Part shown: one piece after another, positions 10,653 through 13,500 of the stretch | Layout of the letters: every line of letters begins with the position of its first letter | How positions within the stretch are numbered: position 1 is the stretch's first letter | Origin: Actinoplanes sp. SE50/110 | GTDB lineage: Bacteria; Actinomycetota; Actinomycetes; Mycobacteriales; Micromonosporaceae | DNA: 64,000 bases | Assembly (NCBI RefSeq): GCF_900119315.1 | Contig: NZ_LT827010.1 | Location: 3,319,001 to 3,383,000, forward strand | Direction: 5' to 3' | The notes under the pieces: generated by a model | What the model was told of the DNA's origin: nothing | Database searches by the model: none | Seen by the model: the letters and a program-made list of their open reading frames with translations, nothing else | Position numbers and translations under genes: made by a program

Positions 10653-11534
10653 TCAGACCAGCGAGAGGTGGCGCGGGGCGAGGCTGACTCGGACGCGCTG
10701 GCCCCAGGAGAGCTCCAGGGCGTCGGACTCCAGGCCGTCGGCGAAGACGACCAGGCGTTCGCTTTCGCTGGTCAGCTCCAGCTCCTGACCGGTGGTGAGA
10801 AGGCCGGAGACGCAACTGACGCCGGTGACCGGGGAGGGCCACGCCTCGCGGACGAACCAGCACAGGGCCGGGTCGGCCGGGGCTGGCAGGGGAGGGGCGG
10901 TGGCGCGGTCGCGGGCGATCGAGGCGCACCAGCCGGTGGCGCCGGTGCCGGTGCCGACGATCAGGCCGGAGGAGGACTGGCGCTCGCGGGTGCCGTCCGG
11001 GGTGGTGATCACGTATCGGGCGGACTGATGGCCGGCGTGACCGATGTAGATCTCGTTGAGGCCGGCCAGCTCCTGTCCGTCGTCGAGCCGGGCGACCACC
11101 ATGGTGCGCTGCTGGCGGGGCAGGCTGCCGCGGAGCAGCCGGCCGACCGCCGTCGCGGGGTGGCGGACCAGGACACCGGGGTTGCGGCCGGGCTCCGGGT
11201 CGACGCCGATCACCGGCTGGCCGTCGAGATATTTCGCGACGTTGGCGACCAGACCGTCCTGCCCGACGGCGATGACCACGTCCTCCGGGGCGAACAGGAA
11301 GCGCGGCAGGTCGGCGCGCTCGACGTGGCCGCGCCGCCAGTCGGCCGGGATGGCGGCCCCGACCTGGGTCAGTGCCTCCCGCAGCGCCTCGTGCCGGGTG
11401 GACACCTCGTCGAGGTCTCGGCCGCGCTGTTTCAGGAAGTAGGCCGCGGCGCCGCGGGTGCCGTGCCGGGCGAGCAGCTCATCGAGCTCGCTGCGCCGCG
11501 ACACGATCACCACGCGGGGGGTCAAGGTGCTCAC
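10653..11534 (-). CDS. NAD(+)/ATP-NAD kinase-like protein
   Basis: A 293-residue protein of the NAD kinase / diacylglycerol kinase-like superfamily. The glycine-rich nucleotide motif, usually GGDGT, reads [13 protein letters not shown]. The NE motif is LNEIYIG. The conserved loop that binds NAD is [16 protein letters not shown] at 11534 is chosen because GGAGG lies eight bases before it. The changed first motif suggests altered phosphate donor or NAD-binding use, so it may not be the housekeeping kinase. It lies 185 bp downstream of the SPFH gene on the same strand and probably belongs to the unit controlled by the facing Nudix regulator. Confidence 0.75.
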
Positions 11535-11719
11535 CAGAAGATCCTCCAATACCGCTCGTCACCATGGGCCCGCGGCGAGCCGGCCGCCGGCCGCGGATCG
11601 GGCCCGAGCAGTCCGGCCGGCGCGCCGGGACTGCTCAGGCGGCAGGCCGCCCGCGCAGGCTGATCAGCGTGCCGGGGTTGCCTGCGCGGTGGTCCATTTG
11701 ATCAGCCCGCTGAGGGTGG

Positions 11720-12745
11720 TCAGGAGCCGATGCGGCCGAGGAGCCTGGTGAGCATGTCCGGGGTGACGGTGAGCTCGCCGATCGCCGGGAGGTGCTGGGC
11801 CAGCTCGCGCAGGGCCAGCGCCTGCAGCACCTCGGGCGGCAGGTCCCGGTAGGCCGCGAGGCGGGCCGCCTCGGCCTCCGCCTCGGCGAGGCCGACGACC
11901 CGGGCGCCGGCCGCCCGGGCCTCGTCGCGCAGCCGCTCGGCGTCGGCCTCGGCGCTCGCCGCGAGCCGCGCCCGCTCGGCCTCGCCCTGGGCTGCCACCA
12001 GCTGCGACTCGGCGTCCAGCTCGGCGCCACGGCGGGCGTTGGCGCCGTGCTGCTCGACCAGGTGCTGCTCCTGCCGGGCGAGCTCGATCTTGCTCTGCAG
12101 CTCGTTCTCCGCGATGGAGCGTTCCTGCTGGACGGCGTGCGCCCGCCGGGCGTAGGTGGCCCGGTCGGCGTCCTGCTGCACCTTTTCCCGGGTGGGGGTC
12201 TGCAGCGCGCGCTCCAGGTCGGGCTCGGGACGGATCGCCACCACCCGGGCGCTGACCACGGTCACCCCGGTCTCGGCCAGCCGCGGGTCGGTGGCCAGCG
12301 CGTCGGCGACGCCCTGGCGGACCGGGGCGATGCCGGTGGTCAGCGTCTCGGCGAGCGGCAGCCGGGCGATCAGGTCGAGCGCGGGCTGCTGGGCCAGCTC
12401 GGCGAGCAGTGTGGCGACCTGGTCGAGGGGCTGACCGTGCCACTGTCCCCGGTAGGGGTCGATGGAGAAGTCGAGCCGGGACGCTGCGGCGGCCGGGTCG
12501 CTGAACCGGTAGGTCACCGTGGCCTGCACGGTCACGTCGGCGAAGTCCTCGGTGCGGGCGTGGAACAGCAGGGGCAGCTCGCGGTCGTCGACCGGCACCT
12601 CGGAGAGGACCGCGGTGAGCGGCCGATACCAGAAGGCGAGCCCGGTGCCGGCGCGCTTGGCCCGGCCCCGCACGGTGTAGCTGACCCAGCTGGTCGGGGC
12701 GGAGCGCAGGTGGCGCAGGTGCAGGCGGCGCTTGATGTCGGCCAT
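11720..12745 (-). CDS. SPFH/Band 7 domain protein
   Basis: A 341-residue protein. Residues about 25-190 look like a Band 7/SPFH domain (VQATVTYRFSDPAAAA, GVTVVSARVVAIRPEPDLERAL). Next is a long Ala/Glu/Arg coiled coil (about 195-290) and a C-terminal segment, PPEVLQALALRELAQHLP. It lacks an obvious N-terminal transmembrane helix, so membrane association would be peripheral or via oligomers. ATG at 12745 is preferred because AGGAAGGA sits eight to nine bases upstream. An in-frame GTG at 12772 is the alternative and would make a leaderless mRNA. It is transcribed from the divergent operator region and followed by the NAD-kinase-like gene. Confidence 0.8.
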   Translation of the reverse strand: MADIKRRLHLRHLRSAPTSWVSYTVRGRAKRAGTGLAFWYRPLTAVLSEVPVDDRELPLLFHARTEDFADVTVQATVTYRFSDPAAAASRLDFSIDPYRGQWHGQPLDQVATLLAELAQQPALDLIARLPLAETLTTGIAPVRQGVADALATDPRLAETGVTVVSARVVAIRPEPDLERALQTPTREKVQQDADRATYARRAHAVQQERSIAENELQSKIELARQEQHLVEQHGANARRGAELDAESQLVAAQGEAERARLAASAEADAERLRDEARAAGARVVGLAEAEAEAARLAAYRDLPPEVLQALALRELAQHLPAIGELTVTPDMLTRLLGRIGS

Positions 12746-12774
12746 CGGGGGGTCCTTCCTCGTTTTCGTCACGA

Positions 12775-12805
12775 TGACGATAAAGCCTGCGAGCTATTAT
12801 CGTCA
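12775..12805. promoter_or_regulatory. Divergent operator: perfect 9-bp inverted repeat overlapping both promoters
   Basis: TGACGATAA (12775-12783) and TTATCGTCA (12797-12805) are exact reverse complements separated by 13 bp. On the plus strand TATTAT (12795-12800) is seven bases before the ATG at 12808, a leaderless -10. On the minus strand TTGACG (12806-12801), an 18-bp spacer and TATCGT (12782-12777) form a promoter for the SPFH gene. A protein bound here would block both directions. Confidence 0.75.
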
Positions 12806-12807
12806 AC

Positions 12808-13500
12808 ATGACCCTTAATGCGATGGCGGTCACGGTCGACCTGGTCCTGCTCACCATCCGGCAGCAGCGGCTGCAGGTGCTGCTGGTCCGCCGCGGTATC
12901 GAGCCCTTCCGGGGCGGCTGGGCGCTGCCCGGCGGGTTCGTCCTCGACGACGAGGACCTCGACGACGCCGCCCGCCGCGAGCTGCGCGAGGAGACCGGGG
13001 TCGACGCGGTCGCCGGTCACCTGGAGCAGCTCGGGACCTATGGGCGGCCCGGCCGCGACCCGCGCGGGCGGGTGGTGACGGTGGCCTATCTCGCGATGCT
13101 CCCCGACCTGCCGGCCCCGGTCGCCGGCAGCGACGCCGCCGGGGCCGCCTGGCGGCCGGTCGACGAGGCCGGCGACCTCGCCTTCGACCACGACCGGATC
13201 CTGGCCGACGGCGTCGAGCGGGCCCGTGCCAAGCTGGAGTACACACCGCTCGCCACGGCGTTCTGCCCGCCCGAGTTCACCGTGGCCGATCTGCGGGTGG
13301 TTTACGAGTCGGTCTGGCAGGTGCAGTTCGACCCACGCAACTTCCATCGCAAGGTGACCACCGCGGAGGATTTCATCGAGCCGACCGGCCACAGCGTGAC
13401 CCGCGAGCGCGGTCGCCCGGCCCAGCTGTTCCGCCGCGGCCACGCGCCGCTGCTGCACCCGCCGCTGCTGCGCCCGGGCAGTCTCGGCCAAAAGTCGTAG
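12808..13500 (+). CDS. NrtR-like Nudix-domain transcriptional regulator
   Basis: A 230-residue protein. The Nudix box is complete (GGFVLDDEDLDDAARRELRE, then ETGV, residues about 42-64). After about residue 145 comes a winged-helix-like C-terminal domain (FTVADLRVVYESVWQ, NFHRKVTT), the arrangement of NrtR-type regulators, which sense ADP-ribose or related NAD metabolites with the Nudix domain and bind DNA with the tail. Because the box is intact it could also hydrolyse its ligand. There is no room for a ribosome site between the palindrome and the ATG; the mRNA is probably leaderless. It is divergent from the SPFH/NAD-kinase-like genes, which are its likely targets along with itself. Confidence 0.85.
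   Translation: MTLNAMAVTVDLVLLTIRQQRLQVLLVRRGIEPFRGGWALPGGFVLDDEDLDDAARRELREETGVDAVAGHLEQLGTYGRPGRDPRGRVVTVAYLAMLPDLPAPVAGSDAAGAAWRPVDEAGDLAFDHDRILADGVERARAKLEYTPLATAFCPPEFTVADLRVVYESVWQVQFDPRNFHRKVTTAEDFIEPTGHSVTRERGRPAQLFRRGHAPLLHPPLLRPGSLGQKS

What the first reader, a model, noticed from the sequence alone, without database searches (positions are those of the whole stretch)
10653..13500. NrtR-like divergon: Nudix regulator facing SPFH and NAD-kinase-like genes with a perfect operator
A 31-bp site with 9-bp exact arms (TGACGATAA/TTATCGTCA) overlaps both the leaderless promoter of the NrtR-like gene and the promoter of the SPFH gene. The targets are not standard NAD salvage genes but a Band 7 protein and a kinase with an altered GGDGT motif. 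This suggests an NAD-metabolite-responsive membrane-scaffold system that I have not seen described.
Basis: partly seen in the sequence, partly recalled or inferred. Interest (0 to 1): 0.75.

Follow-up and report, generated by a model that had tools for sequence, protein, structure and literature searches.

The report
Nudix-regulated SPFH and NADK2-like gene pair
Many actinobacteria appear to control a scaffold-type protein and a relative of the mitochondrial NAD kinase through a nucleotide-sensing repressor with two neighbouring DNA sites, a conserved module for which my paper searches found no description.

Summary
The 31-bp inverted repeat is real (12775-12805), but it is not the operator. 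It is the facing halves of two 21-bp palindromes, 34 bp apart: 12763-12783 and 12797-12817. Twin sites occur in 55 of 56 readable relatives with an adjacent regulator and 8 of 16 without. A twin-site pattern hits 53 of 394 genomes of the class, control 0; of 20 hits fetched have SPFH and kinase. In 7 of 7 kinase-bearing genomes of genus g28, where the regulator lies elsewhere, the palindrome is at both promoters, linking regulator and targets in trans. The kinase-like protein is nearest human mitochondrial NADK2 (E 7e-18; Z 24.4); G(Q/P)DGL replaces GGDGT, but the catalytic Asp and NE/D stay. SPFH and kinase are adjacent in 24 of 24 kinase-bearing genomes of two phyla. By hydropathy the SPFH protein has no N-terminal membrane anchor. 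Best reading: an NrtR-type, probably ADP-ribose-released repressor of an SPFH/NADK2-like module. Effector, direction of control, enzyme activity and complex formation are untested.

The parts
12808..13500 (+). NrtR-type Nudix/winged-helix regulator, 230 aa, intact Nudix box GFVLDDEDLDDAARRELREETGV
   Evidence: Pfam NUDIX 7.8e-23 and NrtR_WHD 5.7e-13; full-length match to S. oneidensis NrtR 3gz5, E 6.3e-29; box checked
11720..12745 (-). SPFH/Band 7 protein, 341 aa, SPFH core then long helix, no N-terminal hydrophobic anchor
   Evidence: Pfam Band_7 5.7e-14; model pLDDT 85.9, pTM 0.52; nearest folds HflK/C, erlin, prohibitin, flotillin, vault protein; hydropathy
10653..11534 (-). NADK2-like kinase-fold protein; GTG start at 11534 suggested by relatives (the ORF opens at TTG 11549)
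   Evidence: profile hit to human NADK2 7r4j E 6.9e-18; model pLDDT 92.4, Z 24.4 to 7r4l; start from alignment
12763..12783 (.). operator site 1 (SPFH side), TTTTCGTCACGATGACGATAA
   Evidence: conserved 21-bp palindrome; the only place in the whole genome with under 2 mismatches to the pattern
12797..12817 (.). operator site 2 (regulator side), TTATCGTCAACATGACCCTTA, dyad on the regulator start codon; weaker, 3 mismatches to the pattern
   Evidence: conserved partner site 34 bp from site 1
12777..12806 (-). candidate SPFH promoter, TTGACG-18-TATCGT, spanning both operators
   Evidence: consensus scan only
12795..12800 (+). candidate -10 (TATTAT) of the regulator, 7 nt before ATG 12808 (leaderless-like)
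   Evidence: read by eye; inference, not found by the scan

Best explanation
The divergon is a dedicated regulatory module. An NrtR-type repressor dimer binds each of two 21-bp palindromes, usually 34 bp apart start to start and in some genomes about one helical turn more. It thereby shuts both the SPFH-kinase operon and its own gene. A Nudix-domain ligand, most likely ADP-ribose or a close NAD breakdown product, releases it; because the Nudix box is intact in most members, the regulator may also hydrolyse the ligand and reset itself. The induced products are a soluble or peripherally bound SPFH assembly protein and a kinase-fold partner of the NADK2 type, which probably acts on NAD(H) or a related nucleotide while held by the SPFH assembly. 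Shown here by sequence: gene identities, conservation of the pair, twin sites, and linkage of regulator and targets also when they are far apart. Inferred: binding, repression, ligand, enzyme activity, SPFH-kinase complex, role in NAD stress.
For: Of 72 readable named loci, twin sites (each at least 14 of 18 letters) occur in 55 of 56 with an adjacent regulator and 8 of 16 without; 57 distinct promoters have spacing 34 (52), 33 (4) or 32 (1). Spacing 44 in G082, G250 and G362, 45 and 46 in G1094 and G1038 (match lengths). Twin pattern: 100 of 250 genomes of the family, control 1 of 250; 53 of 394 of the class, control 0 of 394. In the 34 genomes of the window's genus seen in both: kinase and twin site 14, kinase only 0, twin only 1, neither 19; Fisher p 1.1e-8. 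In 7 of 7 kinase-bearing g28 genomes the unlinked regulator's promoter and the SPFH promoter both carry the palindrome; of 44 sites in 14 genomes I place 33 at those two promoters by position or sequence. Plantactinospora and Micromonospora orphan regulators nest inside the linked clade (100/97). Kinase homology; catalytic motifs; SPFH adjacency 12 of 12 and 12 of 12.
Against: No binding, ligand or enzyme data. GGDGT is changed in every member seen (83 of 83 and 12 of 12, one genome in both sets), so the kinase could be inactive or have another substrate. 8 of 16 loci without a linked regulator lack the twin sites; G271 has the pair without sites, and G316 has all three genes in a row without a site of this type, so the pair and even the trio exist without this operator. 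No regulator was looked for systematically in the Pseudomonadota genomes. The 34-bp spacing may partly reflect promoter geometry. 7 of the 44 strong sites lie at unexplained places. The pattern was derived from these loci, so hits in the window's own family are partly by construction. Foldseek E-values barely separate NADK2 (1.6e-17) from a bacterial NAD kinase (3.4e-17).
Confidence: 0.6

Rival explanations
1. The operator is one 31-bp palindrome with 9-bp arms and a 13-bp spacer.
For: Exact arms in the window; 30 of the 95 upstream regions printed (some genomes twice) keep the exact 31-bp form, mostly Actinoplanes-like.
Against: Outer half-sites are conserved; the distance between the inner arms varies (32-34, 36 in L018, 44) while the 21-bp unit does not; unlinked g28 regulators carry a single 21-bp site.
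Confidence: 0.03
2. The NADK2-like protein is a catalytically dead or sensory NAD(P)-binding subunit of the SPFH assembly, not a kinase.
For: Second Gly of GGDG is Q or P in 83 of 83 and Q in 12 of 12, and Thr is L, V or M; a separate NAD-kinase match, probably the housekeeping enzyme, exists in the same genome (C1:7551828).
Against: Catalytic Asp, NE/D and region II are kept in 83 of 83; [quoted passage not shown]
Confidence: 0.35
3. The module belongs to a wider set of NAD/nucleotide-depletion conflict systems under NrtR-type control; SPFH-kinase protects or rebuilds NAD(P) during such attack.
For: Perfect twin sites between a SIR2-domain gene (10 bp from its start) and a histidine kinase gene in G354; sister regulators form a clade, at least three of them beside PNP_UDP_1 effector-like genes, one with an effector-associated domain; PMC9503650 (section 31) predicts ADPr-sensing Nudix regulators in ADP-ribosylglycohydrolase conflict systems.
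Against: SIR2 link seen in one genome only; no PADLOC hit for SPFH or kinase; the trio looks stably inherited rather than rapidly exchanged (my impression, not measured).
Confidence: 0.3
4. The conserved spacing and half-sites are only promoter elements (-35/-10), not operators.
For: One sigma70-like promoter fits the two sites.
Against: The motif is a 21-bp palindrome, recurs singly at unlinked regulator promoters, occurs with about 10 bp more spacing, and co-occurs with the module.
Confidence: 0.03

Closest known systems
NrtR / MsNrtR, ADP-ribose-responsive Nudix repressors of NAD genes
   Same: Nudix domain plus NrtR winged helix over the full length; palindromic operators at own and target promoters (MsNrtR 23-bp site: PMC6800001, passages)
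   Different: Targets are SPFH and an NADK2-like gene, not nadABC; operator TTNTCGTCA-N3-TGACGANAA differs from GTTTTCGA-N7-TCGAAAAC; Nudix box intact; operators doubled
Bacteroides AraR (NrtR family)
   Same: Two tandem 21-bp semipalindromes in front of an operon (PMC4666351, passages); AraR_C Pfam hit
   Different: AraR sites are separated by 3 bp or 42 nt and it responds to arabinose; here the usual gap is 13 bp (34 start to start)
Human mitochondrial NADK2 (C5orf33/MNADK)
   Same: Best sequence-profile match and best VIA-align fold match, including the N-terminal region and the SSG...GTG..W stretch
   Different: GGDGT replaced by G(Q/P)DGL; bacterial; beside SPFH in 24 of 24 kinase-bearing genomes checked. 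Descent from a common branch was not tested by a tree
SPFH assemblies (HflK/C, erlin, prohibitin, flotillin, vault protein)
   Same: SPFH core and long helix
   Different: No N-terminal membrane anchor by hydropathy; neighbour gene is NADK2-like (that proteases or NfeD proteins are the usual partners is recalled, with QmcA-YbbJ and FtsH-HflKC titles seen)

Membership tests
NrtR family regulator | Nudix domain followed by NrtR winged-helix domain | tested here: met
   Pfam NUDIX and NrtR_WHD above cut-off; 3gz5 alignment of residues 4-208
NrtR family regulator | Conserved palindromic site at own and target promoters | tested here: met
   binding itself is not testable here
NrtR family regulator | Degenerate, inactive Nudix box, as reported for MsNrtR | tested here: not met
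   Strict box in 53 of 56 adjacent regulators and in the window protein; a reported trait of MsNrtR, not strictly defining
NrtR family regulator | Release by ADP-ribose | not testable with these tools
   needs EMSA or ITC
NrtR family regulator | Controls NAD biosynthesis or salvage genes | tested here: not met
   Linked targets are SPFH and kinase-like genes; outside this locus the own genome has only sites with 2-3 mismatches, of which I located one, inside an ORF. NCBIfam NtrR equivalog: 125 of 400 bits required
NAD kinase, NADK2 type | NAD-kinase fold | tested here: met
   Z 24.4, 274 aligned, rmsd 2.9 to 7r4l
NAD kinase, NADK2 type | GGDG motif | tested here: not met
   GQDGL 66 and GPDGL 17 of 83; GQDG(L/V/M) 12 of 12, one genome in both sets
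NAD kinase, NADK2 type | Catalytic Asp, NE/D motif and conserved region II | tested here: met
   Asp and region-II pattern 83 of 83; NE 80 and ND 3 of 83; motif roles from PMC8553519 passages
NAD kinase, NADK2 type | Phosphorylates NAD(H) | not testable with these tools
   needs an enzyme assay
SPFH / Band 7 protein | SPFH domain | tested here: met
   53 bits, cut-off 23.6; folds
SPFH / Band 7 protein | N-terminal membrane anchor (transmembrane helix or hairpin) | tested here: not met
   Crude hydropathy only, 38 rows: the two highest 19-residue means (2.06 in L095, 1.84 in L019) start at residues 144 and 123, inside the SPFH core; the other rows are at or below 1.52. Lipid or amphipathic anchoring not tested

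The most novel reading that the evidence does not exclude
An ADP-ribose-class repressor with an intact, self-resetting Nudix site governs a bacterial NADK2 lineage that works inside an SPFH assembly: an NAD-damage-induced, scaffolded nucleotide kinase that in some genomes is co-regulated with NAD-cleaving effectors. It would be the bacterial counterpart of the mitochondrial NADK2 branch.
Probability: 0.3. Interest if true: 0.82.

Novelty: new variant of a known kind. Interest (0 to 1): 0.6.

Why it matters
It gives a non-salvage target and a doubled operator to a family of NAD-sensing repressors, and exposes a bacterial NADK2-like family tied to SPFH proteins in two phyla. PMC6675116 (passages and section 14) calls the origin of the mitochondrial NADK clade uncertain; a bacterial relative with a fixed SPFH partner gives something concrete to test, both on that origin and on what SPFH assemblies hold.

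Tried and rejected
Rejected: the single 31-bp operator. Rejected: the kinase-like gene as the housekeeping NAD kinase, since another NAD-kinase match is at C1:7551828. Not supported: membrane-anchored SPFH. Known defence system: PADLOC gave nothing for SPFH or kinase and one weak match (PDC-S07, 1.6e-6) for the regulator.

Led nowhere: the two extra perfect sites in G082 (439069, 445508) sit by genes without informative family hits. No consistent divergent partner was seen at the orphan Plantactinospora/Micromonospora regulators. Literature: 0 papers for SPFH+NAD kinase, stomatin+NAD kinase+operon, SPFH+NADK, flotillin+NAD kinase+Actinobacteria; NrtR+band 7 gave one unrelated paper. SPFH+Nudix+operon gave 4, of which I read passages of one, PMC7159879, not relevant. 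SPFH+Streptomyces+regulon gave 4, listing only. NrtR+Nudix+regulator+NAD gave 34, 25 listed, and NrtR+Streptomyces 11; of these I read passages of PMC6800001, PMC4666351, PMC5045206 and PMC9503650 (plus its section 31), the rest in the listing only. Four NADK2 terms, at least three required: 26, 12 listed; passages of PMC6675116 (plus section 14) and PMC8553519 read. The library holds only open-licence papers. Rodionov 2008 and Huang 2009 are not held and are known to me through other papers and recall. PMC6675116 says the NADK duplicates of mycelial Actinobacteria are unrelated to the eukaryotic pair; I did not test whether its Streptomyces nadK2 is this family. If it is, that speaks against my mitochondrial link.

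G016 and G020 left out of the presence table (not drawn); G008's weak match (28%, E 5e-4) counted as no kinase. Some twin-pattern hits look degenerate (for example G826, G873, G1110, G1240, G1327) and were not inspected: I fetched 20 neighbourhoods of my choice (11, 9), not all and not at random. An eighth g28 genome, G228, has neither kinase nor twin site. Genus names for G handles are my inference; the tool gives none. The scan finds close relatives only.
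Full report
What is there. Three genes lie at 10653-13500: a divergent Nudix/winged-helix regulator (12808-13500, +), an SPFH protein (11720-12745, -) and a NAD-kinase-like protein (10653 to about 11534, -). The 31-bp inverted repeat is exact at 12775-12805, the only copy in the window and absent from 100 shuffles. By its nearest named relatives the window is from Actinoplanes or close by (inference).

The operator. A scan of GTDB species genomes with the SPFH protein, which reaches close relatives only, returned 76 loci. By tblastn 75 of 76 carry the kinase (the other, L073, lies at a contig end) and 57 of 76 carry the regulator. Upstream regions show not one but two 21-bp palindromes, TTNTCGTCA-N3-TGACGANAA, mostly 34 bp apart start to start. 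In 72 readable loci both sites are present in 55 of 56 with an adjacent regulator (the miss, L089, has one site) and in 8 of 16 without. Among 57 distinct promoters the spacing is 34 in 52, 33 in 4 and 32 in 1; one unnamed locus, L018, has 36. In G082, G250 and G362 it is 44, in G1094 and G1038 45 and 46 (match lengths). About one more helical turn points to bound dimers on one DNA face (inference). Site 2 is centred on the regulator's ATG.

Specificity. In the window's 9.24-Mb genome a 21-bp pattern finds site 1 with 0 mismatches; the next best place (2 mismatches) lies inside an ORF, and site 2 has 3 mismatches. A twin-site pattern, derived from these loci, hits 100 of 250 genomes of the family (reversed-pattern control 1 of 250) and 53 of 394 of the class (control 0 of 394). 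I fetched 20 of these neighbourhoods, chosen by me: 18 of 20 have SPFH, 18 of 20 the kinase and 18 of 20 a regulator. The two without SPFH (L238, L241) have a related regulator next to a PNP_UDP_1 effector-like gene; two with SPFH and kinase (L256, L257) have no regulator in the stretch. In 34 genomes of the window's genus seen in both, the twin site is present in 14 of 14 with the kinase and 1 of 20 without it (Fisher 1.1e-8).

Trans linkage. Seven genomes of one genus (g28; Streptomyces by my inference) have SPFH-kinase with operator sites but no regulator match in the short flank held. Each has an unlinked regulator (59.6-61.7% identity) whose own promoter carries one palindrome. Across 14 genomes scanned with at most one mismatch there were 44 sites; by position or sequence I place 33 at the SPFH or regulator promoters. 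Of the rest, 2 are at a SIR2-domain gene, 2 at the G362 regulator/PNP promoter, and 7 are unexplained; the control gave 2. Three Plantactinospora and one Micromonospora genome likewise have an unlinked regulator, with twin sites, that nests inside the linked clade (100/97); the g28 orphans group with linked regulators of other families at 91/87, below the starred level. This is the strongest evidence that this regulator controls these genes.

The regulator. It matches Shewanella NrtR over its full length (E 6e-29) but keeps a canonical Nudix box, as do 53 of 56 adjacent orthologues, whereas MsNrtR's motif is described as less conserved, without detectable hydrolase activity (PMC6800001, passages). 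It could therefore both sense and consume its ligand (inference). It is not the NCBIfam NtrR equivalog (125 of 400 bits).

The kinase-like protein. It has no Pfam hit of its own (15 of 38 alignment members hit NAD_kinase at E up to 0.1). Its profile hits human mitochondrial NADK2 at 7e-18, bacterial NAD kinases at 2e-6 or weaker. The AlphaFold model (pLDDT 92.4) aligns best to NADK2 by VIA-align: Z 24.4 over 274 residues, against about 20-22 for bacterial NAD kinases; Foldseek's E-values barely separate them (1.6e-17 and 3.4e-17). GGDGT is GQDGL in 66 and GPDGL in 17 of 83, but the Asp, the NE/D motif and region II are kept in 83 of 83. Members over the whole length occur in 12 of 296 Actinomycetota (one, G316, split over two frames at a contig end) and 12 of 398 genomes of the phylum of a Stenotrophomonas relative; the weaker matches (25 and 70 genomes) cover mostly residues 80-210 and look like ordinary NAD kinases. 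SPFH is adjacent in 12 of 12 and 12 of 12. In G316 regulator, SPFH and kinase lie in a row on one strand, without a site of this type; G271 has the pair without sites.

The SPFH protein. Its model (pLDDT 85.9, pTM 0.52) resembles HflK/C, erlin, prohibitin, flotillin and vault protein (Z about 12-14). A hydropathy scan of 38 rows shows no N-terminal anchor; the two highest means (2.06 in L095, 1.84 in L019) fall inside the SPFH core. 'Membrane scaffold' is thus not supported as stated.

Wider regulon. In G354 perfect twin sites lie between a SIR2-domain gene, 10 bp from its start, and a histidine kinase gene (SIR2_2, E 1.5e-9; weak PADLOC SIR2-family hits). Sister regulators, including one in the window's own genome (L108), form a clade (100/100), and at least three lie beside PNP_UDP_1 genes. 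PMC9503650 (section 31) predicts ADP-ribose-sensing Nudix regulators in ADP-ribosylglycohydrolase conflict systems; the terms SPFH and NAD kinase do not occur in it. A role in NAD stress or conflict is thus plausible but rests on few genomes.

Judgement. Control of the SPFH-kinase pair by this regulator is well supported by comparative sequence evidence. Effector, sign of control, enzyme activity and physical complex are inferred. My paper searches found no description of the module in the open-licence library. PMC6675116 holds that actinobacterial NADK duplicates are unrelated to the eukaryotic pair; whether that covers this family I did not test, so the mitochondrial link is one of resemblance, not shown descent.

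Noticed in passing
11535-11719: The gap between SPFH and kinase is 188 bp by my measure, the longest of 94 loci; 63 of 94 overlap or lie within 20 bp. The stretch has only short partial matches elsewhere in the genome.
   Followed up: partly
L231:3666-5769: Perfect twin operator before a SIR2-domain gene in G354 (Plantactinospora), away from the orphan regulator.
   Followed up: partly
L230:5070 and L230:11509: Two perfect single 21-bp sites 6.4 kb apart in G082, each at the start of an ORF without an informative family hit.
   Followed up: no
L116:3752-7628: Another NrtR-like paralogue in the own genome (65% identity) heads a run of genes ending in an adenylosuccinate synthetase-like gene.
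   Followed up: no
L175, L177-L179 upstream regions: A further g28 paralogue clade carries a related but different palindrome, TTATAGTC-N5-GACTAT(T/A)A, suggesting diverged operator specificity.
   Followed up: no
L151:4776-8410: In the g28 genome G082 SPFH-kinase is divergent from arginine deiminase and ornithine carbamoyltransferase genes, with the operators between them; G185 (L153) looks the same by eye.
   Followed up: no
L241:4080-6740: A PNP_UDP_1 domain in one reading frame with effector-associated domain EAD2 beside a sister regulator with a twin site.
   Followed up: no
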